Shown here one piece after another: positions 5,108-23,759 of a stretch of DNA of 64,000 nt (its first letter is position 1; each line of letters begins with the position of its first letter). The DNA is from Pseudenterobacter timonensis. Its GTDB lineage: Bacteria > Pseudomonadota > Gammaproteobacteria > Enterobacterales > Enterobacteriaceae. A program made the translations under genes and the position numbers. The notes below the pieces were generated by a model. It was not told the origin of the DNA. It was given only the letters and a program-made list of their open reading frames with translations, and did not search any database. The stretch spans positions 310,001-374,000 of the forward strand of contig NZ_FCOP01000012.1 in assembly GCF_900021175.1 (NCBI RefSeq). Reading direction: 5' to 3'.

Positions 5108-5992
5108 ATGACGCAAGAAATCACCCAACGTTCGTTTGTTTTTCCTCCCTTTTCCGAACAGCTCCAGCCTTTTCCTGGCCTTGCCAGCAAAATGAAACCG
5201 CTGCCGGATCATGGCGAAACCTCCTATCAGGGGACCGGCCGGCTGATCGGTAAAAAAGCGCTGATTACCGGCGGCGATTCCGGGATAGGACGCGCCGTCG
5301 CGATCGCCTTTGCCCGGGAAGGGGCCGACGTGGCGATCAACTACCTCCCCGAAGAGGAGGAGGACGCGGTAGAAGTCATCCGTCTGATTAAGGCGGAAGG
5401 ACGTAAAGGCTGCGCCATTCCAGGCGATATTCGTGTGGAGTCGTTCTGCGATACGCTGGTGGAGCGCGCGGTGGCGGAGCTGGGCGGGCTGGATATTCTG
5501 GTCAATAACGCCGGACGTCAGCAGTACTGTAACTCCATTCTCGATCTCACCACCGCGGATTTTGACGCCACCTTCAAAACTAACGTCTACGCGATGTTCT
5601 GGATCACCCGCGCGGCGGTACCGCATCTGCCTGAAGGCGGCGCGATTATCAACACCTCGTCGGTGCAGGCGTTCGATCCTGACGCCATCGTCCTCGACTA
5701 CGCCCAGACCAAAGCTGCCATTGTCGCCTTCACCAAATCGCTGGCCAAACAGCTTGGCAGCAAGGGGATCCGCGTCAACGCCGTCGCGCCGGGGCCGTAC
5801 TGGACGCCGCTGCAGATCTCCGGCGGACAGCCGCAGGAGAAGATAACTTCGCTTGGCGCGCAGACGCCGCTGGGGCGCCCCGGCCAGCCGGCGGAGATCG
5901 CCTCGCTCTACGTCACGCTCGCCTCCATGCAGAGCAGCAGTTATACCACGGGTCAGGTCTGGTGTTCAGACGGCGGTAACGGCACGCTCTGA
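5108..5992 (+). CDS. yghA: YghA-like NADP-dependent short-chain dehydrogenase
   Basis: 294 aa, the exact length of E. coli YghA. Classical SDR fold after a 45-residue N-terminal extension typical of this group: cofactor motif TGGDSGIG (54-61), NNAG (133-136), catalytic Ser184/185, Tyr198 and Lys202 (YAQTK). It probably reduces aldehydes or ketones with NAD(P)H in the cytosol; the substrate is not known. The ATG at 5108 follows AAGGAG. The GH15 gene starts 43 bp downstream, so it looks like the first gene of the carbohydrate operon. In E. coli yghA is not next to trehalose genes, so the linkage here is notable. Confidence 0.85.
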   Translation: MTQEITQRSFVFPPFSEQLQPFPGLASKMKPLPDHGETSYQGTGRLIGKKALITGGDSGIGRAVAIAFAREGADVAINYLPEEEEDAVEVIRLIKAEGRKGCAIPGDIRVESFCDTLVERAVAELGGLDILVNNAGRQQYCNSILDLTTADFDATFKTNVYAMFWITRAAVPHLPEGGAIINTSSVQAFDPDAIVLDYAQTKAAIVAFTKSLAKQLGSKGIRVNAVAPGPYWTPLQISGGQPQEKITSLGAQTPLGRPGQPAEIASLYVTLASMQSSSYTTGQVWCSDGGNGTL

Positions 5993-7935: not shown

Positions 7936-9723
7936 ATGGAATCCAGAATCTTTCATAAGCACTGGGGTGCGGAATACCTTTCTGATAACAGCGTCCGCTT
8001 TCGTCTCTGGGCGACCGGACAGCAGTCGGTCACGTTACGTCTCGGTGATAAAGCGCTTCCAATGGAGCAGGCGGAGGATGGCTGGTATCAGATTACGGTG
8101 CCGGATGTACCTCACGGCACCGAATATCAGTATGAGCTGGCTGACGGGATGCGTATTCCCGATCCAGGCTCCCGGGCGCAAAAGGGCGAGGTGAACGGTC
8201 CCTCCCTGACAATCGACCCTGGTCGTTATCACCATGAAAATAACGACTGGAAAGGACGCCCCTGGGAAGAGACGGTTATTTATGAACTGCATATCGGTAC
8301 CTTTACCGAGGAGGGAACCTTCCGGGCGGCGATTGAAAAACTGCCCTACCTGGTGGAGCTGGGGATAACCCAGATAGAGGTTATGCCCGTCTCCCAGTTT
8401 GGCGGCTCGCGTGGCTGGGGCTATGATGGCGTACTGCTCTACGCTCCGCACTCCGCCTATGGTACGCCGGAAGATTTCCACGCCTTTATCGATGCCGCTC
8501 ACGGTCTGGGGCTCTCCGTGGTGCTGGATATCGTACTGAACCACTTCGGCCCGGAAGGTAACTACCTTCCATTGCTCTCGCCAGATTTCTTCCATAAGGA
8601 TCGCATGACCCCCTGGGGACACGGCATCGCCTACGAGAATGCGGCCGTCCGGCAGTATATTATCGACGCGCCGCTCTTCTGGCTGACCGAATACCGGCTC
8701 GACGGACTGCGCTTTGACGCCATCGACTGGATCGAGGACAGCGCCGAAAAGCCGCTGCTGGAGGATATCGCGGAGCGTATTCGTACCGCGATCCCCGACC
8801 GGCATATTCATCTCACCACCGAGGACAGCCGTAACGTCATCTTCCTTCATCCACGCGACGAAGCGGGTAACACGCCGCTTTTTACCGCCGAGTGGAACGA
8901 CGACTTTCATAACGCCGCGCACGTGCTGGCAACCGGTGAAACCCACGCCTACTATCAGGATTTCGCTGACCAGCCGGAGAAACATTTTGCCCGGGCGCTG
9001 GCGGAAGGGTTCTCCTATCAGGGAGAGATCTCCCCTCAGACCGGTGAGCCGCGCGGGGTGAGCAGCGTCGACCAGCCGCCGCAGGCGTTTGTCGATTTTA
9101 TCCAGAATCACGATCAGACCGGTAACCGCGCCCAGGGCGACAGGCTGATTACCCTCGCCGGACCGGAAAAAACGCGCGTGCTGCTCGCCGCGCTGCTCCT
9201 GTCGCCCCATATCCCGCTGCTGTTTATGGGTGAGGAGTATGGCGAGACGCATCCTTTCCTCTTTTTCACCGATTTTCATGGCGAGCTGGCGAAAGCGGTA
9301 CGCGAAGGGCGCGCCCGGGAGTTTTCCGGTCATGCGGGGCATGATGAAACTGTCCCGGATCCCAACGCGTTGACCACCTTTACCCGCGCGAAGCTGGACT
9401 GGAAAAAGGTGGCAAGCGAAGAGGGAAAATCCTGGCTAAGGTTTACACGTACCCTGATTGAATTGCGTCATCGTCATATTGTGCCGCTGCTGACCCCGGT
9501 CAGCCGTGTGGAGAGTCAGGTGCTGCACACCGCCCCTGGAATGGTGGCGGTTAGCTGGCGCTTTGCCGCGGGAACGCTTTCGCTGGCGCTGAATATCGGC
9601 ACCGATACGCAGGCGCTACCCGCCATGCCCGGCGAGGTGCTTTTCGCCTGGCCGGAGCAGCAGGATACGCTGACGCCGAACACGATTATCGTCCGCTTTG
9701 CTGATGGAGAAGCATTGTCATGA
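7936..9723 (+). CDS. treZ: TreZ, malto-oligosyltrehalose trehalohydrolase
   Basis: 595 aa, usual size for the family. An N-terminal CBM48-like beta domain (1-100) precedes a GH13 barrel with YELHIGTFTEEGTF at its start. Catalytic residues can be placed: nucleophile Asp261 in LRFDAID, acid/base Glu296 in TTEDSRN, stabilising Asp393 in NHDQTG. It cuts trehalose from malto-oligosyltrehalose made by TreY, in the cytosol. The ATG at 7936 has GAGGG eight bases upstream; another ATG at 7932 is out of frame. It overlaps treY by ATGA, implying translational coupling. Confidence 0.95.
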   Translation: MESRIFHKHWGAEYLSDNSVRFRLWATGQQSVTLRLGDKALPMEQAEDGWYQITVPDVPHGTEYQYELADGMRIPDPGSRAQKGEVNGPSLTIDPGRYHHENNDWKGRPWEETVIYELHIGTFTEEGTFRAAIEKLPYLVELGITQIEVMPVSQFGGSRGWGYDGVLLYAPHSAYGTPEDFHAFIDAAHGLGLSVVLDIVLNHFGPEGNYLPLLSPDFFHKDRMTPWGHGIAYENAAVRQYIIDAPLFWLTEYRLDGLRFDAIDWIEDSAEKPLLEDIAERIRTAIPDRHIHLTTEDSRNVIFLHPRDEAGNTPLFTAEWNDDFHNAAHVLATGETHAYYQDFADQPEKHFARALAEGFSYQGEISPQTGEPRGVSSVDQPPQAFVDFIQNHDQTGNRAQGDRLITLAGPEKTRVLLAALLLSPHIPLLFMGEEYGETHPFLFFTDFHGELAKAVREGRAREFSGHAGHDETVPDPNALTTFTRAKLDWKKVASEEGKSWLRFTRTLIELRHRHIVPLLTPVSRVESQVLHTAPGMVAVSWRFAAGTLSLALNIGTDTQALPAMPGEVLFAWPEQQDTLTPNTIIVRFADGEALS

Positions 9724-12248
9724 TACCTTCCGCTACCTACCGTATTCAGTTTCGCAACGGCATGACCTTCGATCGTGCCGCGGCGCTGGTGCCCTATATG
9801 AAATCATTGGGTATCAGCCATCTGTACGCCTCGCCCATCTTTACGGCGGCCTCGGGCTCCACGCACGGCTATGACGTCGTCGACCCCGACGAAATCGATC
9901 CGGCGATAGGCGGCCGGGAAGGGTTTGACCGTATGTCCGCGGCCCTACGTCAGGCGGGAATCGGGCTGATCCTGGATATTGTTCCTAACCATATGTCCAC
10001 CTCGCTGGAAAATCGCTGGTGGCGGGATGTAATCAAGAACGGGCAGAAAAGCCCTTACGCGCGTTACTTCGATATCGACTGGTCGCGTCCGCTTACGCTG
10101 CCTTTTCTGGGGGACACCTTTGAGGCGGAGCTGGAGAAGGGCGCCATCACGCTCGCCCGGGATCCTGACGACGGGCTGGTCTTTGACTACTATGAGACGC
10201 GCTATCCCCTGAACCCGGAGAGCGTTGCCGGCCAGGAAGAGGCGCTGCTGGCGAATCCCGATGTTGATACCCTGACCCGACTGCACGAGGCGCAAAGCTG
10301 GCGGCTGATGTCCTGGCGGGAGGCGCCGAAACAGCTCTCCTGGCGACGTTTCTTTGAGATCACCGGGCTGGTGGGCGTGCGGGTGGAGGATGAGGCGGTA
10401 TTTGATGCCACGCACCGGCTGATCCTCTCGCTGGTGCATAGCGGCGTGGTGGACGGCCTGCGTATCGATCATGTTGATGGGCTCGCCGATCCGCTGGGCT
10501 ATCTGCAACGGCTGCGCCAGGCTGCCGGGCCGGACTGCTACATTACCGTGGAGAAGATCCTCGCGAAGGGGGAACAGCTCCCGGAAGAGTGGCCCATCTC
10601 CGGCACCACGGGCTATGAATTTATCGCCTCGCTGGCCGAAGTACTGGTGGATGACGACCGGTTCGACACCCTGGAGCGCATCCATGACGAGGTGCTCGGC
10701 ACCACGGCAGATAAGCAAAACGAACTGCGGGATGCCAAAGGGCTGATGGTCGATCGCAATTTCGAGGGCGAATTTACCACCCTGCTTAATCTGGCGGAGC
10801 AGCTTGCCGGGGAGAACGGCGTGGAGAGTGACAGGGAGGCGCTGCACCACGCCCTCCGGGAGCTGTTGATCGCCTTTCCTGTCTATCGCACCTACGGTAC
10901 GCCGGATGGTGTGACCGCGGCGGATATCACCTTGCTGCACCGGGTTATCGGCAAAGTTAACGCCCAGGAGACGCCCCCTGAACCCGCGGCGCTGAACCTG
11001 ATCATTCATATTCTGACCGGCGAACTGATCGCGGAGAGTCTTGAAAAGGCGGGGCTGTTCAGGACGCGCTTCCAGCAGCTTACCGGGCCGCTGATGGCGA
11101 AATCGGTAGAGGATACGCTCTTCTTCCGCCACAACATGGGGCTTGCCTTAAACGAGGTGGGGGGAGATCCCAATCCACGCGCTTTCTCTCTGGCACGCTT
11201 TCACCAGGAGATGCGTATTCGTCTTGCCAGCCAGCCCGATGCGCTGCTCGGCACTTCCACGCATGACACCAAACGCGGCGAGGATGCCCGGGCGCGCCTC
11301 TATACCCTTACCGAAGCGCCGGAACGTTGGGCTGAATCGCTTGCCCGCTGGCGTCAGGTGAATCAGACCCATGTCCGCTTCCTTAATGACGGTACCGCCC
11401 CGGACGCGGCCGACACCTGGATGCTCTACCAGGCGCTGGCGGGCGTCTGGCCGGCGACCTTAACCCCCGACGATCGCGACGGCCTGCTGGAGCTGGAAGA
11501 GCGTTTTCTTGGCTTTGTCGAGAAGGCGCTGCGCGAGGCCAAGCAGCGTACCGACTGGATCGACAGTAATGAAAGTTACGAGAGCGTAGTCCTGAAGTAT
11601 GCCCGCCATCTGCTGTCCGCCGATAACCGGCTCTTTCTGGATGATTTCAACGAGAACCTGCAGCCTTTCGTGCGTGCGGGGCTGATGAACAGTCTTACCC
11701 AGACGGTCATTAAGCTGACGGCGCCAGGCGTACCTGATATTTACCAGGGGAGCGAAGGGCTGAACTTTAGTCTGGTCGATCCGGACAACCGACGGGAACC
11801 CGATTTTGCCACCCTTGCCCGGGATCTGCAGACCGCCGGACCGACGCTCTTTCAGGACGAGCAGCACTGGCGAAACGGCAGGGTGAAACAGTATGTCACC
11901 GCCACGCTGTTACGCCTGCGCCAGCACTATCCGACGCTGTTCCGCTATGGCGACTGGCTGCCGCTGAAGGTTAGCGGTAACCGGGAAGATAACCTTATCG
12001 TTTATGCCCGTGTGGAAGAGAACATGGCGCTGATCGTGGCCGTTCCGCGCCTGGTTTTTGACATCACGGCAGAGAGCCTGACTTCCGGCTATGACCAGCT
12101 CTGGGGAGATACGACCGTCGCGCTCCCTGAGAGCCTGGCGGGCCGAACATGGCGCGATCTGTTTAGCGCAGAAGAGACCCAACTGAATGAAACGCTTGAA
12201 CTGGCAGGCGCAGCAGGATGCCTGAAGATCCTGCTCACCGTCGAATAA
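9720..12248 (+). CDS. treY: TreY, malto-oligosyltrehalose synthase
   Basis: 842 aa, typical of TreY, which is larger than other GH13 enzymes because of inserted helical domains. It isomerises the reducing-end alpha-1,4 bond of maltodextrins to alpha,alpha-1,1. Motifs: SHLYASPIF near residue 38, nucleophile Asp250 in LRIDHVDGLADP, acid/base Glu278 in ITVEKIL, and STHDTKRGED as region IV. The start overlaps the treZ stop. The gene product works in sequence with TreZ, and GlgX encoded next supplies debranched chains. Confidence 0.95.
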   Translation: MIPSATYRIQFRNGMTFDRAAALVPYMKSLGISHLYASPIFTAASGSTHGYDVVDPDEIDPAIGGREGFDRMSAALRQAGIGLILDIVPNHMSTSLENRWWRDVIKNGQKSPYARYFDIDWSRPLTLPFLGDTFEAELEKGAITLARDPDDGLVFDYYETRYPLNPESVAGQEEALLANPDVDTLTRLHEAQSWRLMSWREAPKQLSWRRFFEITGLVGVRVEDEAVFDATHRLILSLVHSGVVDGLRIDHVDGLADPLGYLQRLRQAAGPDCYITVEKILAKGEQLPEEWPISGTTGYEFIASLAEVLVDDDRFDTLERIHDEVLGTTADKQNELRDAKGLMVDRNFEGEFTTLLNLAEQLAGENGVESDREALHHALRELLIAFPVYRTYGTPDGVTAADITLLHRVIGKVNAQETPPEPAALNLIIHILTGELIAESLEKAGLFRTRFQQLTGPLMAKSVEDTLFFRHNMGLALNEVGGDPNPRAFSLARFHQEMRIRLASQPDALLGTSTHDTKRGEDARARLYTLTEAPERWAESLARWRQVNQTHVRFLNDGTAPDAADTWMLYQALAGVWPATLTPDDRDGLLELEERFLGFVEKALREAKQRTDWIDSNESYESVVLKYARHLLSADNRLFLDDFNENLQPFVRAGLMNSLTQTVIKLTAPGVPDIYQGSEGLNFSLVDPDNRREPDFATLARDLQTAGPTLFQDEQHWRNGRVKQYVTATLLRLRQHYPTLFRYGDWLPLKVSGNREDNLIVYARVEENMALIVAVPRLVFDITAESLTSGYDQLWGDTTVALPESLAGRTWRDLFSAEETQLNETLELAGAAGCLKILLTVE

Positions 12249-16842: not shown

Positions 16843-16845
16843 TGA

Positions 16846-17100
16846 GAGGGTGGATATCATCTCAGCCTGTGGTCACTGTTAAGCTTTAAGTTTATCCGGG
16901 CTATTAGTCGATTATACAACCGTGCCATTCGTCTGCCCCGCCAGGAATATTTGCTGGGTGAGTTAAAGCAGCCACTTATCATCAGCACTTATGGCATATT
17001 TCTTAAAATTGATGGGTGTTATTGCTGGAGAAGAGCAAGAGTGATTAACTGCGCCTCAGGTTTGTTGTATATGCTTACATTTAGTAAAGCTAACACATGA
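16846..17100 (+). other. Open frame without a good start, between the HipA-like gene and the glycosyltransferase
   Basis: The yjjJ stop is followed at once by a second in-frame TGA. The same frame is then open for 84 codons up to a TGA overlapping the next ATG (ATGA at 17097). The only in-frame ATG is ten codons from the end. The predicted peptide is basic with an aromatic N-terminal part and includes RLPRQEYLLGELKQPLII. It may be the decayed end of a lost gene; no family was recognised. Confidence 0.3.
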
Positions 17101-18299
17101 ACAGAAAAATAGCGCAAAGAAAGCTACTGAAACATCACAGTAATTCTCGAAAAAATTCTCGCTTTCAGTCGGATCTATCAGGCACTGACCTACGATTCAT
17201 GGATCTCCGGAGACTTAATTTGCAAAATATCAATTTAACCGGAAGTGACCTTTCGTTTAGCGATCTGCGGGGCGCTAATTTCTCTTTAGCAAACCTCCAG
17301 GGAGCAAACCTCAGTCATTGCAGATTAGAAGGGGCTGTTTTCGATCGTGCGGTCTGTACGGGCGTGGACTTTTCGGGAAGTAATGTCGATGCCGCCAGTT
17401 TTACTGGTGCGCTTATGGAGGATAAGTACGCCGGTGTAGCTACGCAGTCTTCTCAGCCACTTGTTACTGTCTATATGCCGACATGGAACCGTGAAAAGCT
17501 GACAATACGAGCCATAGAGTCGGTCCTTAAACAAGATTATACGAACTGGGAACTGATTATCATTGATGATTTTTCGTCTTCCTTTCAACAGTTACAGACG
17601 TTTATTACTGTTCTCAATGATCCAAGGATTACGTACATTCGTAATGAATTTAATTCAGGTGCCTGTGCTGTAAGAAATCAGGCAATACAAATGGCCAGAG
17701 GTTATTTGATTACGGGCCTGGATGATGATGATGAATGGTTACCGACCCGGCTTTCTTCCTTCCTTGCATGCCGACATAAGCTTGAGCACCATGCGTTTTT
17801 GTATGCCAATGATTACCTTTGCGACAGTAGCGGTTATGACTCTTTAAGTGAATTAAAGAACTACCCAAAGCCAGCGTATAAAAAGAGTCTGTTTGATAAG
17901 AGAAATATCGTTGGCAATCAGATGTTTACATTAACGGACAGGATGCGAAAAATTTTGTTCGATGAGAAGTTGAGTGCTGCTCAGGATTATGATGCATTCT
18001 ACCGACTGGCCGAAACGTATGGTGATCCTTTCAAACTGGATGACTTCACGCAAGTGCTGTATGTCAACCATGGTGAAGCCCGAATAACGTGCTCGGGACG
18101 CAAGTTTGCAGGGTATCTGGATTTCTATCGGAAGCATAAATCCAAACTGGACGCATCGAGTAGAAAATACCAGCTTTTTACCTTGTACTACATACGCAAC
18201 AAAAGAATGAGTTCACGTACGCTAATCGCGCTGCTGACACTGCGTAATCTGAAAAGATATCTGATGATGTATTCCAGTTTCCGCAACAGAAAGTTTTAG
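17097..18299 (+). CDS. Pentapeptide-repeat / family 2 glycosyltransferase fusion
   Basis: 400 aa. Residues about 25-107 are pentapeptide repeats of the A(D/N)LXX type (DLSGTDLRFMDLRRLNL, then ANLQGANLSHCRLEGA). Residues 121-340 are a GT-A glycosyltransferase 2: VTVYMPTWNR, an Asp pair at 157-158, the metal-binding DDDD at 209-212 and QDYDAFYRL as the acceptor-side acid. The last 45 residues are basic. The enzyme probably adds a sugar to a surface glycan or lipid-linked acceptor; the repeat helix may dock it to a partner. The region is visibly more AT-rich than its neighbours, suggesting transfer. The ribosome binding site is poor and the start overlaps the preceding frame by ATGA. Confidence 0.8.
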   Translation: MNRKIAQRKLLKHHSNSRKNSRFQSDLSGTDLRFMDLRRLNLQNINLTGSDLSFSDLRGANFSLANLQGANLSHCRLEGAVFDRAVCTGVDFSGSNVDAASFTGALMEDKYAGVATQSSQPLVTVYMPTWNREKLTIRAIESVLKQDYTNWELIIIDDFSSSFQQLQTFITVLNDPRITYIRNEFNSGACAVRNQAIQMARGYLITGLDDDDEWLPTRLSSFLACRHKLEHHAFLYANDYLCDSSGYDSLSELKNYPKPAYKKSLFDKRNIVGNQMFTLTDRMRKILFDEKLSAAQDYDAFYRLAETYGDPFKLDDFTQVLYVNHGEARITCSGRKFAGYLDFYRKHKSKLDASSRKYQLFTLYYIRNKRMSSRTLIALLTLRNLKRYLMMYSSFRNRKF

Positions 18300-18651
18300 C
18301 ACTGTACTGATGACGATCATGATGATGTTTATCAGAAGAGAAGAGGTTAGCTTTGTTATCTCCCGGGAACCGTTATCGACTGCCAGATCACTTCTTTCAA
18401 AAAATAGCGAGCATGTCTGCAGGGTAATCACGTCGCTAACCATGAGATGAGTTCTTTTTTAGCATGTCGCGATCAACCAGAACAAGATCATCGCGGCCAT
18501 TCTGCAAAACGCTGGGCGAAGAGGGGCGGGAAATGGATAAACCTGTGCTTGAAGTGAAGGCGCCAGTTCGTGGATGTGCTGCGTGAGCCATATTAGTTAA
18601 TTTAACATAATATACATTATGCGTACTAACGTTGTAGGGGCTCAATGATAA
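18300..18651. other. 352-bp non-coding stretch between the glycosyltransferase and the IS left end
   Basis: No gene is supported. A short plus-strand frame around 18450-18590 (a peptide containing CKTLGEEGREMDKPVL) has no convincing start or ribosome binding site and was not recognised. It could be the remains of a gene cut by the insertion. Confidence 0.4.
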
Positions 18652-18680
18652 TGTCTATTTGTGGCTCATTAGGAATGTCC
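18650..18680 (+). repeat. Left terminal inverted repeat of ISNCY-like element
   Basis: The 31 bases from 18650 pair with the reverse complement of 21348-21379: 27 of 32 aligned positions agree with one gap. Both contain AATGTCTA, TGGCTC and AATGTCC. The element tip is taken as TGTCTA at 18652. Confidence 0.6.
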
Positions 18681-18744
18681 AGGCTATAGTTCTCAGACCT
18701 GTATGCCTAGTCAACAACTCACTTTTCCTGATGAGGAGTTTTCT

Positions 18745-20145
18745 GTGGCTATACATGACACCGGGATGTTCACCGTGAAAGAAATCAACCGCCTCAAAAT
18801 CCTTCAGGATGTCATCGACCGCAACCTGCGTCCTGGTCAGGCAGCCGAAATGCTCGGTATCACGCCGCGCCATTGCAGCCGTCTGCTGAAACGTTATCGT
18901 CAGTCCGGGCCACTGGGCATGAATAACCAGAGTCGTGGTCGCACCGGAAATCGCCTGCTTCCCGCATCATTGACTGATCAGGCCCTGAATATCATCCGTG
19001 AACGCTATGCCGATTTTGGCCCCACACTGGCGCGGGAAAAGCTCGCTGAAAATCACGGTATTGTTCTTGGTAAGGAAACGCTCAGACGGCTTATGATAAA
19101 AACCGGGCTCTGGATTCCCCGCAAGCAACGTGCGCCAAAAATTCAGCAGCCACGCTATCGCCGGGCTTGCTGCGGCGAACTGATCCAGATTGATGGTTGC
19201 GACCATCACTGGTTCGAGAACCGTGCGCCTGCCTGTACTGCCCTGGTCTACGTTGATGATGCGACGAGCCGCCTGATGCAACTCCGTTTCGTGAAATCGG
19301 AATCGACTTTCACCTATTTTGAAGCCACGCGGGGCTATCTGGAGAAGCATGGCAAACCCCTGGCGCTGTACAGCGATAAAGCCAGCGTCTTCAGAATCAA
19401 CAATAAAAACGCTACCGGTGGCGATGGTTATACCCAGTTTGGCCGTGCGATGCACGAACTGAACATCCAGACTATCTGCGCCAATACCAGCTCAGCCAAA
19501 GGCCGTGTGGAACGGGCCCATCTGACGCTTCAGGATCGCCTGGTAAAGGAGCTCCGGCTCAGGGGCATTTCCTCAGTGGATGCAGCCAATGATTTTGTTG
19601 ATGAGTTTATGACCGATTACAACCGGCGCTTTGGCAAAGCACCCCGGCATGACTTTGGTGTTCACCGGCCACTTGAAACTGATGATGATCTGACCGCATT
19701 TTTCACATGGCGGGAACCGCGCCGTGTTTCAAAATCCCTGACGGTGCAGTATGACAAAGTGCTCTATCTGATTGAAGACAATGAGTTAAGCCGAAGGGCT
19801 ATTGGCAAGTACATTGAGGTCTGGCATTACCCGGATGGCCGGAAAGAGCTCCGGCTAAACGGGGTTGTCCTTCCCTACTCCACCTATGATCGCCTTCAGG
19901 AAATCGACCAGGGGGCTATCGTGGACAACAAGCGCCTCGGGCGTACTCTTGAATTTATCAAACTGGTACAGGACAAACGCGACAAAAACCGGTCACAGGC
20001 TCTCCCTGCCGGAGATGGCCCCTCGCGCCGACGCAGGAAACCCACAGAGAAGAAATCCCAGCGATCTCTGGACGAAGACGATATGCTCAATGCGCTGAAG
20101 ACATTACAATCACGTTCTGACGAGATTTTCGGTACAAGGAAATGA
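18745..20145 (+). CDS. ISNCY/IS1202-group DDE transposase
   Basis: 466 aa from a GTG at 18745 that has GAGGAG six bases upstream; an ATG at 18703 in frame lacks a site. Residues about 8-55 are an HTH (RPGQAAEMLGITPRHCSRLL). The catalytic core is Mu/retroviral-integrase-like: first Asp in IQIDGCDHHWF, second in ALYSDKASVF, Glu in AKGRVERAHLTLQDRL. The C-terminal 60 residues are basic (RSQALPAGDGPSRRRRKP). It looks intact and would act on the ends at 18652 and 21377. An 88-bp stretch of its 3' part is repeated at 21564-21651. Confidence 0.9.
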   Translation: MAIHDTGMFTVKEINRLKILQDVIDRNLRPGQAAEMLGITPRHCSRLLKRYRQSGPLGMNNQSRGRTGNRLLPASLTDQALNIIRERYADFGPTLAREKLAENHGIVLGKETLRRLMIKTGLWIPRKQRAPKIQQPRYRRACCGELIQIDGCDHHWFENRAPACTALVYVDDATSRLMQLRFVKSESTFTYFEATRGYLEKHGKPLALYSDKASVFRINNKNATGGDGYTQFGRAMHELNIQTICANTSSAKGRVERAHLTLQDRLVKELRLRGISSVDAANDFVDEFMTDYNRRFGKAPRHDFGVHRPLETDDDLTAFFTWREPRRVSKSLTVQYDKVLYLIEDNELSRRAIGKYIEVWHYPDGRKELRLNGVVLPYSTYDRLQEIDQGAIVDNKRLGRTLEFIKLVQDKRDKNRSQALPAGDGPSRRRRKPTEKKSQRSLDEDDMLNALKTLQSRSDEIFGTRK

Positions 20146-20206
20146 CATGGAGATGATGGCAGACATAATCCCATCTTCATAGAGCTGCAATGCAAGAGAG
20201 CTTAAG

Positions 20207-20230
20207 GTCCGCTTTGAGCGAAGAGCGGAC
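20207..20230. repeat. Hairpin GTCCGCT...AGCGGAC after the transposase gene
   Basis: GTCCGCTTTGAGCGAAGAGCGGAC can fold into a stem-loop 60 bp after the transposase stop. A similar hairpin (GTCCGCTT, 8-base loop, AAGCGGAC) lies in the 57-bp right-end repeat at 21312-21335 and 23143-23166. It could end transposase transcription or be part of the element end. Confidence 0.4.
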
Positions 20231-20255
20231 CGCAAATAGTCATTGACATTGCCGT

Positions 20256-20290
20256 CGGCAAAATGGTTGTATTGCACAACTATTTTGCCG
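20256..20290 (+). promoter_or_regulatory. Near-perfect operator palindrome upstream of the MarR-GNAT gene
   Basis: Two 15-bp arms (20256-20270 and 20276-20290) agree as inverted repeats at 14 of 15 positions around a 5-bp centre. The right arm runs into the ribosome binding site GGAG (20290-20293) before the ATG at 20301. Size and position are those of a MarR-family autoregulatory operator. Confidence 0.7.
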
Positions 20291-20300
20291 GAGACTGTTT

Positions 20301-21251
20301 ATGAATCCAGAATCATCAGTTGTTCAAGGTATACGCGTCGCCTCTCGTGCTATGGTACGAGAACTGGGCTTTATGAACACCACACTGGCTGCAACAGATT
20401 ACCCACCCTCAGCTGTCCATGCCCTCCTTGAGATTGAGGCGCAGGGTTCACTGACTGCAGCCCAACTGGTGCAGATACTGGGGCTTGAAAAGTCGAGCGT
20501 CAGCCGAATGCTTGCGAAACTTGTCGATGCTGGAGAACTGGCAGAAACCCCCTCCTCTGAAGACGCCAGGGTAAAGCGTCTTTGCCTTACAGGAAAAGGC
20601 CAAAAGACTGTAATAGCCATCAATAATTACGGTGACGAACGAGTGGTCGCCGCATTACAAAAACTGGATCACTTTCATCAACAATCTGTCTATCAAGGTA
20701 TTTCTTCGTATGCCGACGCTCTGAAAGCCTGCCGCAATGATATGGAACTCAATGGGCTGAGCTGTGTAAAAATTATTTCCGGTTACCATGCGGGCATGAT
20801 TGGCCGCATTACAGAAATGCATGGCAGTTATTACGCGAGAGAACATAATTTTGGAGGTTTTTTTGAAGGTAAAGTCGCTCAGGGGCTCGCTGATTTTACC
20901 AACCGTCTTGATAAGCCATGTAATCAGATTTGGCTGGCAACGGTGAATGATCGCATTGTAGGCTCAGTGGCAATAGATGGTGAGGATCTGGGGAATAATG
21001 AAGCGCATTTACGCTGGTTTATCCTAGATGATGGCTGCCGTGGCAGCGGATTAGGCAGAAAGCTTATTCAAAAGGCGATGAGCTTTTGCGAAGAGCAGAA
21101 ATTCTCCGCGGTTCAGTTATGGACATTTAATAAGCTTACAGCGGCAAGATGGTTGTACGAATCATTTGGATTTGAATTAACGAAAGAGTGGCAGGGAGAT
21201 CAGTGGGGCAGTACCATCACTGAGCAGCAGTTCACCCGTAACATCATTTAA
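20301..21251 (+). CDS. MarR-GNAT fusion: HTH regulator with C-terminal N-acetyltransferase
   Basis: 316 aa. Residues about 30-140 are a MarR winged helix (LTAAQLVQILGLEKSSVSRM with a basic wing EDARVKRLCLTGKG). Residues about 155-310 are a GNAT domain with the acetyl-CoA loop GCRGSGLGRKL starting at residue 245. Such fusions are known in bacteria, and their targets are mostly unknown; small-molecule detoxification by acetylation with self-regulation is a fair guess. It lies between the transposase gene and the predicted right end, so it looks like cargo. The operator palindrome upstream supports autoregulation. A perfect 18-bp palindrome follows the stop. Confidence 0.88.
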   Translation: MNPESSVVQGIRVASRAMVRELGFMNTTLAATDYPPSAVHALLEIEAQGSLTAAQLVQILGLEKSSVSRMLAKLVDAGELAETPSSEDARVKRLCLTGKGQKTVIAINNYGDERVVAALQKLDHFHQQSVYQGISSYADALKACRNDMELNGLSCVKIISGYHAGMIGRITEMHGSYYAREHNFGGFFEGKVAQGLADFTNRLDKPCNQIWLATVNDRIVGSVAIDGEDLGNNEAHLRWFILDDGCRGSGLGRKLIQKAMSFCEEQKFSAVQLWTFNKLTAARWLYESFGFELTKEWQGDQWGSTITEQQFTRNII

Positions 21252-21252
21252 C

Positions 21253-21270
21253 TGGTCTCTATAGAGACCA
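21253..21270 (+). terminator. Palindromic terminator-like sequence after the MarR-GNAT gene
   Basis: TGGTCTCTATAGAGACCA is a perfect 18-bp palindrome two bases after the stop codon, followed by ATTTT. It has no unpaired loop, so hairpin formation would open the central pairs. Confidence 0.5.
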
Positions 21271-21310
21271 ATTTTAGCAGGTTCGCTTTCAGCTAACCAT
21301 TGATCAGCTC

Positions 21311-21367
21311 TGTCCGCTTCTGGCACTAAGCGGACTTTTCAACATCAGGACATTTCTAACGAGCCAG
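21311..21367 (+). repeat. 57-bp direct repeat, copy 1 (IS right-end sequence)
   Basis: Identical to 23142-23198 except for one base (C/T at 21356). It begins with a hairpin (GTCCGCTT and AAGCGGAC) and ends inside the right terminal inverted repeat (CGAGCCAG). The two copies are 1.83 kb apart in the same orientation and bracket the cupin and AraC genes. Confidence 0.85.
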
Positions 21368-21379
21368 TAATTAGACATT
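21348..21379 (-). repeat. Right terminal inverted repeat of ISNCY-like element
   Basis: Reverse complement matches the left end at 18650-18680 in 27 of 32 aligned positions. It overlaps the second half of the 57-bp direct repeat. Confidence 0.6.
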
Positions 21380-21563
21380 TTCACTGAGCTTTGACAAACG
21401 TCAGATAACGAGGATTGTAGCCAGATTGGTGCAGTAGTTAGTTCGCATAACAGTTGGATTGTCTTGCGCCCTCAGGTTCAGATTGAGGAAGTCTCCAGCT
21501 AAGCTCTCACTTTGCTGTCTTCGACAGCCCTACGTTCGAGGGATTGTGCTCGTGATTAGCTTG

Positions 21564-21651
21564 TACTCCACCGATGATCGCCTTCAGGAAATCGACCAGG
21601 GTGCTATCGTGGACAACAAGCGCCTTGGGCGTACACTTGAATTTATCAAAC
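21564..21651 (+). pseudogene. 88-bp remnant of an ISNCY transposase gene
   Basis: Matches 19876-19963 of the intact transposase gene at 84 of 88 bases and keeps the frame (DRLQEIDQGAIVDNKRLGRT). Both flanks are unrelated to the intact gene. It is too diverged to be a recent internal duplication and fits a decayed second element whose right end is the repeat at 23142-23198. Confidence 0.85.
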
Positions 21652-21697
21652 GATATATCAGACAGACCAGCCAGCCGGGCTGTCTGATACAACTCAG

Positions 21698-22060
21698 CTA
21701 GATCCAGACATCGCTTTCAGCGGTGCGTTCCCCACCCTCATGTCCGGTATTCAGCACACCACAGGGTTCTATCATCATCATTTTTACCGTCGTTTGGGCT
21801 GACGTTTTATGTTCTACACCTTTTGGTACAACGTAGATTTCTCCCGGATTAACGAGGACGTGGCCGTCGCGAAAATCGATACGCAATATGCCCTCCACTA
21901 CTATAAAGGCCTCGTCGGTTTCAGGATGTGAGTGCCAGATGAAGTCGCCCGCTATTTTCACGATTTTGAACTGGTAATCGTTCATCTGCGCAATGACTTT
22001 TGGCTGCCAATGGGTGTCGAAAAGAGAAAATTTTTGTTCCAGATTTACCGGTGAAGACAT
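21698..22060 (-). CDS. Small cupin-domain protein
   Basis: 120 aa, single cupin_2 beta barrel. Metal-binding pattern: FIWHSHPETDEAFIVVEG (His, His, Glu) in motif 1 and VPKGVEHKT (His) in motif 2. Proteins of this size bind Fe, Mn or Zn and act as dioxygenases, isomerases or ligand sensors; the substrate cannot be told. Good ribosome binding site AAGGAA. It is downstream of an AraC regulator in the same direction (75-bp gap), and both lie between a transposase remnant and a duplicate IS right end, so they may be former cargo. Confidence 0.85.
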   Translation of the reverse strand: MSSPVNLEQKFSLFDTHWQPKVIAQMNDYQFKIVKIAGDFIWHSHPETDEAFIVVEGILRIDFRDGHVLVNPGEIYVVPKGVEHKTSAQTTVKMMMIEPCGVLNTGHEGGERTAESDVWI

Positions 22061-22135
22061 GATGACATTCCTTAATGTTTAAGAAACGTCGAGGATAAAT
22101 AAAGTGGCTGTGACGGTCTTGAACGATCGTGCAAC

Positions 22136-22954
22136 TCAGACACGGTGGGGGTGAATGAAGGTTTGCCAACGGCCCGGAGAAATACCGTATGCTTTTATAA
22201 ACTGCCGTGTCATATGGCTTTGATCTGAGAACCCTGCCTCTAAAGCAGATTCTGCAAGTGACAGACCTGTCTGAATCAGCTGTCTGCAGTATGCAAGACG
22301 GCGCATTGTTACATAGCGATAAGGACTCGTACCGAAAAGCGTCCGAAAATCCCGGCTTAGGCTCCAGCGATCTTTACCACAGACGATGGATAAGGTTTCC
22401 AGCGTAATGTTTTGGCTGAATTCAGATTGTATATATTCGCGCGCGCGCTCTGCAGACTGATAATCCACAAGGCAGCGACGAAAGCGTTGCCCTCCTACGA
22501 CGGCCAAAGTCTGGGCAAGATCATAAAGTGCGTCCTCCTCTTCAAGGACATCAATAGAATCTTCTGACGCTTTTAACAGCGGTCCGGTAGCGGCAAAAAG
22601 CCGGGGATCTGCTGATAATCCACTTGGAATAAAGGGTAGTGGTTTTCCGCCCAAAATTTTCTGAATTAACGCCGGCTCGATATACAGCATCCGGTACTGA
22701 AATCCTTCTGTCGTTCCTGCCTCACCATCATGAATTTCATCCGGATGCAGGACTATTGTCCCGCCGGGTAAACTGTGTTGTTTACTATTGCGGTAACGAA
22801 AGCTTTGCACACCTGACAGTGTCCTGCCGATCGCATAAGTATCATGCCGATGAGGTTCATAACCATATCCACTGAAGTAAGCCTCCAGGCGTTCAATTTT
22901 TCCCGGCGTGTGTGCAACTCTGACCCAGTCTTTATTCGATTGTGGAGCCGACAT
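22136..22954 (-). CDS. AraC-family transcriptional regulator
   Basis: 272 aa. N-terminal cupin-like AraC ligand domain (residues 10-150; YEPHRHDTYAIGRTLSGVQ) and two C-terminal HTHs (ITLETLSIVCGKDRWSLSRD and LAESALEAGFSDQSHMTRQF). It probably responds to a small molecule and controls the adjacent cupin gene. Start taken at the ATG 22954; an in-frame GTG at 22963 with GGA upstream is equally possible. No palindromic operator was identified. Confidence 0.85.
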   Translation of the reverse strand: MSAPQSNKDWVRVAHTPGKIERLEAYFSGYGYEPHRHDTYAIGRTLSGVQSFRYRNSKQHSLPGGTIVLHPDEIHDGEAGTTEGFQYRMLYIEPALIQKILGGKPLPFIPSGLSADPRLFAATGPLLKASEDSIDVLEEEDALYDLAQTLAVVGGQRFRRCLVDYQSAERAREYIQSEFSQNITLETLSIVCGKDRWSLSRDFRTLFGTSPYRYVTMRRLAYCRQLIQTGLSLAESALEAGFSDQSHMTRQFIKAYGISPGRWQTFIHPHRV

Positions 22955-23141
22955 GCGTGACACCTGTTTCCAGTTGAAGGAGAATTTCTACCATAACCTT
23001 ATCGGGTTCGATTTTGAAAGAAGTTGATGAAAGCACGTTGGTCTCACGTTCAGCTTCGTTCTGCCAGATGCATCAAAAACTGCCAGTAAACTTGTTCAAT
23101 TCGGGACTATAAGTAATTAAAACGCGTAACCCCTGCACATA

Positions 23142-23198
23142 TGTCCGCTTCTGGCACTAAGCGGACTTTTCAACATCAGGACATTTTTAACGAGCCAG
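23142..23198 (+). repeat. 57-bp direct repeat, copy 2 (orphan IS right-end sequence)
   Basis: One mismatch to 21311-21367. The following bases (CGGATTTCCGACG) diverge from the TAATTAGACATT that completes copy 1, so the very tip is lost or different. Confidence 0.85.
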
Positions 23199-23276
23199 CG
23201 GATTTCCGACGTTCTGGTCCCTTAACGTAGATATAGGGTAAGTTTCTTTACCATCAGCGCATGACGTGAAAAAAAC

Positions 23277-23302
23277 GCCGCAAGCAGTTTCCCGCTTACG
23301 GC
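23277..23302 (-). terminator. Intrinsic terminator of yebG
   Basis: On the minus strand a GC-rich stem (8 of 9 pairs, GCCGTAAGC with GCTTGCGGC) is followed by seven T residues, 30 bp after the yebG stop. Confidence 0.8.
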
Positions 23303-23332
23303 TATAAAAGTAGTGACGACCGGTTCTGGCTA

Positions 23333-23650
23333 TCAGGCAGCTTTAACGGCTCTGATTTTTTTACTACCCGCCTCACCTGCTTCGGCTTTATCTGTTGCGG
23401 CTATAGCATCAGGATCGGGAAGCTTGCTGGTACGCAGAATATGCTGCACGGCCTCTTTCTGCTCGGCAAGATAGAGCCCAAGGTTCTCTGCCTGCGTTTC
23501 ATCCATCTGCATTCCGCTTTGTAACAGCCAGTCGGTGAACGCTTCTGCCAGGTCCAGCATTTTGTCGTAGCTGTCAGCCTCTTTCTTACTGGCAAATGTC
23601 ATTTTCTTTTCACCTTTTCTTACAACAACATAATGTGTTTCAACAGCCAT
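23333..23650 (-). CDS. yebG: YebG, SOS-inducible small protein
   Basis: 105 aa (E. coli 96). Nearly whole-length YebG family match ([20 protein letters not shown] at the start, then [19 protein letters not shown]); the C-terminus is longer and Ala/Lys-rich. Expressed in the DNA-damage response; its molecular role is not known. AGGAG precedes the ATG and a strong LexA box lies 14 bp upstream of the start. A terminator follows. It marks the return from accessory to core DNA. Confidence 0.93.
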
Positions 23651-23663
23651 AATCTACTCCTGG

Positions 23664-23683
23664 TACTGTAAATATATACAGTA
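23664..23683 (-). promoter_or_regulatory. LexA (SOS) box of yebG
   Basis: TACTGTAAATATATACAGTA is a perfect 20-bp palindrome at its ends with the core CTGT-N8-ACAG of LexA sites, just upstream of yebG. Confidence 0.9.
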
Positions 23684-23759
23684 TACCACTTCCGGAACTG
23701 TTTTGCAGCCTGAACGTGCTTACACCTATACTTTTAAAAAAGTAAAAAGGAGCATCACA

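What the first reader, a model, noticed from the sequence alone, without database searches (positions are those of the whole stretch)
17097..18299. Pentapeptide-repeat domain fused to a family 2 glycosyltransferase
About 80 residues of pentapeptide repeats precede a GT2 domain with an intact DDDD motif. The gene is AT-rich compared with its neighbours and lies beside an IS, a HipA-like kinase and gene debris. The repeat helix could be a docking or dimer module.
Basis: seen in the sequence. Interest (0 to 1): 0.55.

Follow-up and report, generated by a model that had tools for sequence, protein, structure and literature searches.

The report
Mobile WcaA-like glycosyltransferase with repeat helix
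A second, mobile copy of a bacterial slime-capsule enzyme, fused to a small repeat-helix domain, travels on lambda-like phages and is kept intact by selection, which suggests that phages use it to change the surface of the bacteria they live in.

Summary
Window 17097-18299 (+) is one intact 400-residue gene: a basic helix, about 80 residues of pentapeptide repeats, a loose linker, and a GT2 domain with its catalytic motifs. The GT2 domain is a paralogue of WcaA, the colanic acid glycosyltransferase; the same genome also has the ordinary wcaA in its cps operon.

The fusion is not an artefact: 16 full-length in-frame copies of the close family (the window's included, several near-duplicates) share the domain order, with median dN/dS about 0.13 for the repeats and 0.06 for the enzyme.

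The informative relatives lie in lambdoid phages: 8 IMG/VR contigs, a prophage in genome G306 and one on a plasmid. There the gene sits at several different places, mostly on the strand opposite its larger neighbours, with its own leader of about 100 nt. Other copies, like the window's, are chromosomal orphans; some lie beside ISNCY-type elements.

Best reading: a mobile "moron" gene that adds a second, active WcaA-type enzyme to the host's colanic acid pathway, the repeat helix being a tethered docking or dimer module; the likely benefit is a surface that hinders other phages. Enzyme class, conservation and mobility are shown; substrate, docking role and phage exclusion are inferred.

The parts
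16990..17096 (+). conserved leader upstream of the gene, probably promoter and 5' untranslated region
   Evidence: Shared at 70-78% identity over 60-138 nt (matches run a few bases into the gene) with nine other loci; upstream of it homology to the window ends. TTAACT, a possible -35 box, stands in 10 of the 11 leaders aligned. The consensus promoter scan found no more sites than shuffles and none in the leader, so promoter function is inferred.
17097..18299 (+). pentapeptide-repeat / WcaA-type GT2 fusion gene (400 aa)
   Evidence: Intact frame; Pfam and NCBIfam hits; 77-81% identical full-length relatives; purifying selection.
17097..17156 (+). N-terminal basic helix (about residues 3-19), N-cap of the beta-helix
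   Evidence: AlphaFold2 model, block pLDDT 82 and 90; basic composition read from the sequence.
17169..17411 (+). pentapeptide repeats, residues about 25-105 (about four coils of beta-helix)
   Evidence: PF00805; period-five test 0 of 2000 shuffles; block pLDDT 87-92 for residues 21-80, falling to 73 by residue 100; median dN/dS 0.13.
17412..17450 (+). linker, residues about 106-118
   Evidence: pLDDT below 50 at residues 103-117; weakest constraint (median dN/dS 0.51).
17451..18296 (+). WcaA-type GT-A glycosyltransferase domain, residues 119-400; DD157-158, DDDDEW209-214, NIxGNQ270-275, QDYD296-299
   Evidence: NF007453 409 bits over 119-388; motif columns invariant in A1 and between fusion and canonical WcaA; GT-A fold matches in PDB.

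Best explanation
The gene is a mobile accessory gene ('moron') of the lambdoid phage and prophage gene pool of Enterobacteriaceae, here stranded in a chromosome. It encodes a second, active WcaA-type glycosyltransferase. The enzyme most likely adds a sugar to the undecaprenyl-linked colanic acid repeat unit (or a close variant), in competition with or in addition to the chromosomal WcaA. Its N-terminal pentapeptide beta-helix, on a flexible tether, most likely holds the enzyme to itself (dimer) or to a partner of the polysaccharide machinery. The expected result is an altered or increased surface polysaccharide in the lysogen, which shields it from other phages. Shown: fusion, WcaA kinship, conserved catalytic residues, purifying selection on both domains, several phage positions, shared leader. 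Inferred: catalytic activity, donor and acceptor, docking role, effect on phages.
For: WcaA model score 409 bits against a cut-off of 382 (NF007453). The own canonical wcaA is 59% identical over residues 109-388 and lies in a cps operon whose part seen (wza to manC, named by eye from ORFs of L055) looks intact. Full-length fusions: six contigs of five assemblies, 77-80% identical; one conjugative plasmid, 78%; IMG/VR, 8 of 11 loci at 78-81%, one cut at the contig edge. Phage context by PHROGs: between O/DnaC-type genes and NinB/NinG/Q (scanned in L080; L079 and L081 share the gene clusters); beside HNH and RusA (scanned in L078; prophage L048 shares them); behind central tail fibre J and tail fibre (scanned in L082; L085 shares them, L083 the near flank); behind Q (L084). 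In 7 of 8 viral contigs the gene runs against its larger neighbours. Leader shared across contexts. Median dN/dS: repeats 0.132, GT 0.060. No catalytic motif among the 29 fixed differences from canonical WcaA. All 11 of 11 family genomes with a stand-alone copy also hold a canonical wcaA, while 100 of 392 have any such match. Colanic acid overproduction blocks phages (passages of PMC12753057); a lambdoid prophage sRNA that reduces phage infection also altered transcription of colanic acid genes (passages of PMC12803456).
Against: No enzymatic or phenotypic data exist. The window copy and those in L005, L007/L008, L009, L010 and plasmid L017 show no phage genes among the neighbours looked at (one or two scanned per locus at most), so phage carriage may be only one vehicle; in L007 ISNCY-type pieces bracket the gene. 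No terminator was found downstream in the window and no shared downstream element. Relatives L053, L054 and phage contig L098 lack the repeats (L098 by eye), so the repeats are not essential to every member. The co-occurrence with canonical wcaA is confounded by kinship. TIGR04017, the stricter WcaA model, is not met (410.7 against 495.75). Synonymous sites are near saturation, so the dN/dS values are rough.
Confidence: 0.5

Rival explanations
1. A converting enzyme with changed target: it keeps the WcaA chemistry but glycosylates another envelope polymer (O-antigen, ECA or another EPS), in the manner of phage gtr genes.
For: 29 fixed differences from canonical WcaA, many at residues 300-335 and in the C-terminal helix and tail, 5 of them tail positions that canonical WcaA lacks; GT2s 38-40% identical occur in other cps clusters (L089, L090); phage L084 carries a second moron glycosyltransferase (phrog_1579).
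Against: 137 of the 166 positions fixed in both groups are the same, and WcaA kinship is far closer than to any other GT2 model (next non-WcaA NCBIfam model 85 bits). All 11 genomes with a stand-alone copy have canonical wcaA.
Confidence: 0.23
2. An ordinary chromosomal wcaA paralogue for stress exopolysaccharide, moved by IS elements and occasionally picked up by phages, with no phage-related role.
For: Chromosomal copies with a fixed downstream context in three genomes of genus g68 (L049-L051); orphan copies in several genomes; ISNCY-type pieces on both sides in L007 and an ISNCY beside the window copy.
Against: Sporadic presence in the own genus (4 of 61 genomes, two-match rows), low GC, several phage positions with a shared leader. 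The window IS and the L007 transposase are only 48% identical, so they are not one carrier.
Confidence: 0.18
3. A decoy: the repeat domain plus an enzyme fold displaces host WcaA and shuts colanic acid off, for example to keep receptors of the own phage accessible.
For: 59% identity to host WcaA and a possible oligomer module make mixed complexes conceivable.
Against: Catalytic residues are fully conserved and the enzyme domain is the most constrained part (median dN/dS 0.06), which a mere decoy does not need.
Confidence: 0.07
4. Artefact: chance fusion, assembly error or decaying pseudogene.
For: Gene debris and IS fragments lie downstream.
Against: Sixteen intact in-frame copies from many assemblies; purifying selection.
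Confidence: 0.02

Closest known systems
WcaA, colanic acid biosynthesis glycosyltransferase (NCBIfam NF007453 / TIGR04017)
   Same: GT-A domain of about 270 residues, mostly 57-64% identity, all catalytic motifs.
   Different: Extra 118-residue N-terminus with pentapeptide repeats, lies outside the cps operon, mobile, extra C-terminal tail, below the TIGR04017 cut-off.
Pentapeptide-repeat proteins (PF00805; solved examples All3740 3du1, NP275, MfpA, QnrB1)
   Same: Period-five repeats, predicted beta-helix.
   Different: Only about four coils, fused to an enzyme; far below the Qnr and MfpA cut-offs (27.8 of 240 and 23.8 of 360 bits).
Phage lysogenic-conversion glycosyltransferases (gtrABC serotype conversion, PHROG 'moron' glycosyltransferases)
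   Same: Phage-borne GT2 enzyme in an accessory position.
   Different: Best such PHROG hit is weak (phrog_22739 GtrB-like, E 8.7e-7); no GtrA or GtrB among the 29 phage-neighbour ORFs scanned; kin of a colanic acid enzyme.
Prophage NC-SV sRNA svsR (PMC12803456, passages read)
   Same: Lambdoid prophage factor that limits other phages and also affects colanic acid genes.
   Different: A regulatory RNA that represses lamB and other maltodextrin genes, not an enzyme.

Membership tests
Glycosyltransferase family 2 (PF00535) | Profile above gathering score and DxD-type motif | tested here: met
   92.9 bits against 23.3; D209-D212 invariant.
WcaA proper (colanic acid operon enzyme) | Score above NCBIfam cut-offs | tested here: inconclusive
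   NF007453 met (409.2 of 382); TIGR04017 not met (410.7 of 495.75).
WcaA proper (colanic acid operon enzyme) | Location in the cps/wca operon | tested here: not met
   The operon copy is a different gene at G000:C13:476011-476850.
WcaA proper (colanic acid operon enzyme) | Places with canonical WcaA in a tree | tested here: not met
   21 canonical rows form one group (100/100); the window gene lies outside.
WcaA proper (colanic acid operon enzyme) | Transfers the WcaA sugar in colanic acid synthesis | not testable with these tools
   Needs biochemistry; the reference study (PMC6445743) was not held.
Pentapeptide-repeat family (PF00805) | Tandem pentapeptides above gathering score | tested here: met
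   67.3 bits against 20.2; 0 of 2000 shuffles.
Qnr/MfpA gyrase-protecting pentapeptide proteins | Curated Qnr or MfpA score | tested here: not met
   NF033086 27.8 of 240; mfpA model 23.8 of 360.
Phage moron / lysogenic-conversion gene | Same gene at different places among phage genes | tested here: met
   Nin region, RusA/HNH, tail-fibre end, behind Q; the first two may be one insertion, as L078/L048 and L079 share flanks.
Phage moron / lysogenic-conversion gene | Own promoter and terminator | tested here: inconclusive
   Shared leader; no promoter-like site in the leader and no terminator by scan.
Phage moron / lysogenic-conversion gene | Changes the phenotype of the lysogen | not testable with these tools
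   No expression or phenotype data.
gtr serotype-conversion cluster | gtrA flippase and gtrB beside a third transferase | tested here: inconclusive
   No GtrA or GtrB among the 29 phage-neighbour ORFs scanned, but not every ORF was scanned; L084 has a phrog_1579 glycosyltransferase about 5 kb away with unscanned neighbours.

The most novel reading that the evidence does not exclude
Lambdoid phages carry a dedicated enzyme that enters the host's own colanic acid assembly line. It is a WcaA paralogue tethered by a pentapeptide beta-helix to the polysaccharide machinery, so that a lysogen makes a phage-specified variant of colanic acid that excludes competitors. This would be capsule conversion by a single enzyme added to a host Wzx/Wzy-type pathway, and a scaffolding role for pentapeptide repeats in polysaccharide synthesis.
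Probability: 0.25. Interest if true: 0.72.

Novelty: new variant of a known kind. Interest (0 to 1): 0.5.

Why it matters
Phage conversion of O-antigen by gtr genes is textbook knowledge (recalled). A phage-borne enzyme aimed at colanic acid, the stress capsule of enterobacteria whose overproduction blocks phages, would be a new route. The pentapeptide fusion also offers a concrete test of what short pentapeptide helices do outside gyrase protection. The fusion is easy to miss: the one plasmid record with a full-length copy annotates it as wcaA with a start codon that leaves the repeat domain out.

Tried and rejected
Rcs regulation: the best match to the RcsAB box consensus in 22 leaders scores 8-11 of 14, as in 1000 simple shuffles (7-12). 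The control upstream of wza scores 11, but so does another site inside the operon, so the test is weak. Left as unsupported.

IS mobilisation: one transposase cluster (five ORFs) appeared beside the gene in L007, L008, L009 and the window. The window IS is a plasmid ISNCY, 48% identical to the L007 transposase. My first view, that this was chance, did not hold on rechecking: in L007 and L008 a stretch of about 214 nt upstream of the leader is 79% identical to the 3' part of the L007 transposase gene, which in L007 lies whole on the other side of the gene. The L009 ORF joined the cluster only through an antisense frame over the leader. IS-assisted spread in some hosts therefore stays open; a single IS carrier for the whole family is not supported. 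One rival was raised by 0.01 for this.

Phage remnant around the window gene: only window 18280-18710 was searched against phages, with one 31-nt match; window 16843-23700 was searched against plasmids. No remnant was found there.

Canonical WcaA derived from the fusion by domain loss: trees place canonical WcaA inside a fusion grade, but holding all 18 stand-alone rows together is not rejected (p-AU 0.132), and long branches are involved; left open. Outgroups L089 and L090 gave extreme branches and were dropped.

First alignment with canonical WcaA used the wrong strand for L002 and is disregarded for that row.

Literature: 'pentapeptide repeat' + glycosyltransferase + wcaA, 0 papers; pentapeptide repeat + prophage + moron, 2 papers, unrelated by the titles and abstract starts seen; pentapeptide repeat + glycosyl transferase + fusion + phage, 1 review, listing only.

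Rows dropped before counts: dN/dS used 11 of 22 coding sequences (near-duplicates L008, L048, L080, L081, L083 and the distant L049-L054 left out); of 55 pairs, dS was finite in 43 for the repeats and 36 for the GT domain, and the medians rest on those. The FastTree run used 26 of 29 canonical rows (three failed the start or length filter). and 56 further dropped near-duplicates L030, L031, L032, L036, L043, L008, L080, L048, L083.

Full report
Observation. The reported region is one intact frame, window 17097-18299 (+), 400 residues. Pfam gives PF00805 Pentapeptide (E 7.9e-19) and PF00535 Glycos_transf_2 (E 2.7e-26). The repeats are not a chance pattern: 12 consecutive period-five hydrophobic centres, 0 of 2000 shuffles as long. 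The region has 42% GC, against 53-62% upstream (8-16.5 kb) and 46-53% downstream (18.5-23.5 kb).

What the enzyme is. NCBIfam identifies the GT2 half as WcaA-like (NF007453, 409 bits, above its cut-off; TIGR04017 410.7 bits, below its stricter cut-off; the next non-WcaA model scores 85 bits). The same genome holds a canonical wcaA at G000:C13 (59% identity to residues 109-388). Its surroundings (L055) read as the first part of a colanic acid operon: wza, wzc, wcaA, further transferases, gmd, fcl, wcaI, manC. These names rest on ORF order and my reading of protein starts, not on a family scan, and the rest of the operon was not looked at. The gene in question is therefore a second, stand-alone WcaA paralogue.

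The fusion is real. Sixteen full-length copies of the close family, the window's included, translate without internal stops at 400-401 residues; several are near-duplicates, and L048 and L078 were trimmed to the homologous start. Pfam finds the repeats in the window protein and in 8 of 10 other family proteins scanned; L053 and L054 lack them, and their N-termini fail the periodicity test. Phage contig L098 has a WcaA-like gene without repeats by eye (324 aa, 70% identical to the L049 type over the GT part). So the GT domain can exist without the repeats, but where repeats are present they are kept: median dN/dS is 0.132 for repeats, 0.060 for the enzyme and 0.51 for the linker among 11 members (55 pairs; dS finite in 43, 36 and 28 of them), with synonymous sites near saturation. 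Trees put canonical WcaA in one well-supported group and the stand-alone types around it; one clade of all 18 stand-alone rows is not rejected (p-AU 0.132), and the root is not resolved.

Active site. Invariant columns of the 15-row alignment include D157, D158, D209-D212, E213, W214, N270, G273-Q275, Q296, D297 and D299. Against 21 canonical WcaA rows the 12 phage-type rows show 29 fixed differences (5 of them tail positions that canonical WcaA lacks) and 137 shared fixed positions; none of the differences hits those motifs. An active enzyme is the simplest reading. Which sugar WcaA adds was not established here; the key paper was not held. Two papers, passages only, list WcaA among the enzymes of the colanic acid repeat unit.

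Structure. The AlphaFold2 model (mean pLDDT 75, pTM 0.60) has an N-terminal helix 3-19, a beta-helix at about 25-102 (block means 87-92 over residues 21-80, 73 by residue 100), a low-confidence linker 103-117 and a GT-A domain. The best PDB fold matches are GT-A enzymes such as TarS, TarP, RmlT, AvpGT and chondroitin polymerase K4CP. A short confident beta-helix on a flexible tether suits a docking or dimer role, but nothing here tests that.

Where it lives. The IMG/VR scan returned 11 loci, 8 of them of this family at 78-81% identity, one cut at the contig edge. PHROG scans of neighbours show lambdoid phages; where only one contig was scanned, the others share its gene clusters. In L079-L081 (scanned: L080) the gene lies between O/DnaC-type replication genes and NinB/NinG/Q. 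In L078 (scanned) and prophage L048 it lies beside RusA and HNH genes; these share flanking DNA with L079 (84% over 688 nt upstream), so this may be the same insertion. In L082 (scanned) and L085 it lies behind central tail fibre J and a tail fibre; L083 shares the near flank; L006 also has a tail-fibre chaperone domain (Peptidase_S74) next door. In L084 it follows Q. The E. roggenkampii plasmid copy L018, truncated, lies near tail-fibre assembly and dinI genes. In 7 of 8 viral contigs it runs against its larger neighbours; in L084 it runs with them. The DNA around L079 matches Gifsy-2, SPN3UB and mEp237 at 77-82% over 14-27% of the 10.9-kb query. Other copies lie in chromosomes or on a conjugative plasmid with no phage gene among the neighbours looked at, as in the window. 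Three genomes of one genus share a fixed downstream context, a TonB/FecCD iron-uptake cluster (L049-L051). No partner gene recurs in all contexts.

Insertion sequences. The window gene is followed by an ISNCY element common on Klebsiella plasmids, present once in full in this genome. In L007 the gene is bracketed by pieces of another ISNCY-type element (48% identical transposase): the whole transposase gene downstream and a 3' remnant of about 214 nt (79% identity) upstream of the leader, also seen in L008. IS-assisted spread in some hosts is therefore open, beside phage carriage.

Mobile unit. About 100-110 nt upstream of the window's start codon are shared with nine loci in other contexts and then homology to the window stops. 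TTAACT in this leader stands in 10 of 11 sequences. Downstream homology to the window ends at the stop codon. A promoter scan found no more than shuffles and no terminator, and an Rcs box is not supported.

Distribution. In the family, 100 of 392 genomes have a match at E 1e-60 or better, mostly canonical wcaA. Eleven have a stand-alone copy (nine with repeats, two without), and all 11 also have a canonical wcaA; kinship confounds this. In the own genus 4 of 61 genomes have the stand-alone type. Among 5426 E. coli genomes none has a place covering 80% of the gene; none of the 190 matching phage records and 1 of the 643 matching plasmid records does. The genus is probably Enterobacter: G407 appears to be the E. 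chuandaensis genome of L005, because the matches have nearly the same coordinates.

Mechanism. I commit to a mobile moron-type gene that supplies an active WcaA-type enzyme to the host colanic acid pathway, with the beta-helix as a tethered docking or dimer module and altered surface polysaccharide as the benefit. Colanic acid overproduction gives broad phage resistance (PMC12753057, passages), and a lambdoid prophage sRNA that limits phage infection also altered transcription of colanic acid genes (PMC12803456, passages). These are analogies, not evidence for this gene. Novelty: no paper in the held library combines pentapeptide repeat, glycosyltransferase and WcaA; two further searches showed nothing relevant in their listings. 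It is a new variant of a known kind.

Noticed in passing
L017:5445-5795 (NZ_CP042572.1): The annotated wcaA of plasmid pE5_001 starts at 5796 and leaves out the pentapeptide part, which is open and in frame from 5445; such start choices may hide this fusion elsewhere.
   Followed up: partly
L007:7614-7830 and 9285-10625; L008:7617-7831: An ISNCY-type transposase gene and a 3' remnant about 79% identical to it bracket the fusion gene in L007 (remnant also in L008), in the same orientation; a possible second vehicle.
   Followed up: partly
L098:5007-5981: A viral contig carries a WcaA-like gene without pentapeptide repeats just behind tail genes, a second kind of phage-borne WcaA.
   Followed up: partly
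L053:9519-10664 and L054:9502-10668: Stand-alone WcaA paralogues whose N-terminal extension of about 100 residues has lost, or never had, the repeat periodicity.
   Followed up: yes
L084:14449-15906: The same phage contig that carries the fusion behind Q also carries a PHROG moron glycosyltransferase (phrog_1579), suggesting two surface-modifying genes in one phage.
   Followed up: no
window 21311-21367, 23142-23198, 21564-21651: 57-nt direct repeat pair and an 88-nt piece of the ISNCY 3' end; debris that looks like plasmid-type IS insertions.
   Followed up: partly
window 20301-21251: MarR-type regulator fused to a GNAT acetyltransferase downstream of the IS.
   Followed up: no
L008 (CACSKA010000015.1): Record titled Chryseobacterium carries an Enterobacteriaceae copy and equals contig G258:C15 in length, so the title or the binning looks wrong.
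   Followed up: partly
L104:1081-2958: A 625-aa ORF in an unnamed family genome holds a pentapeptide stretch 42% identical to the window repeats, without a GT2 domain apparent by eye.
   Followed up: no
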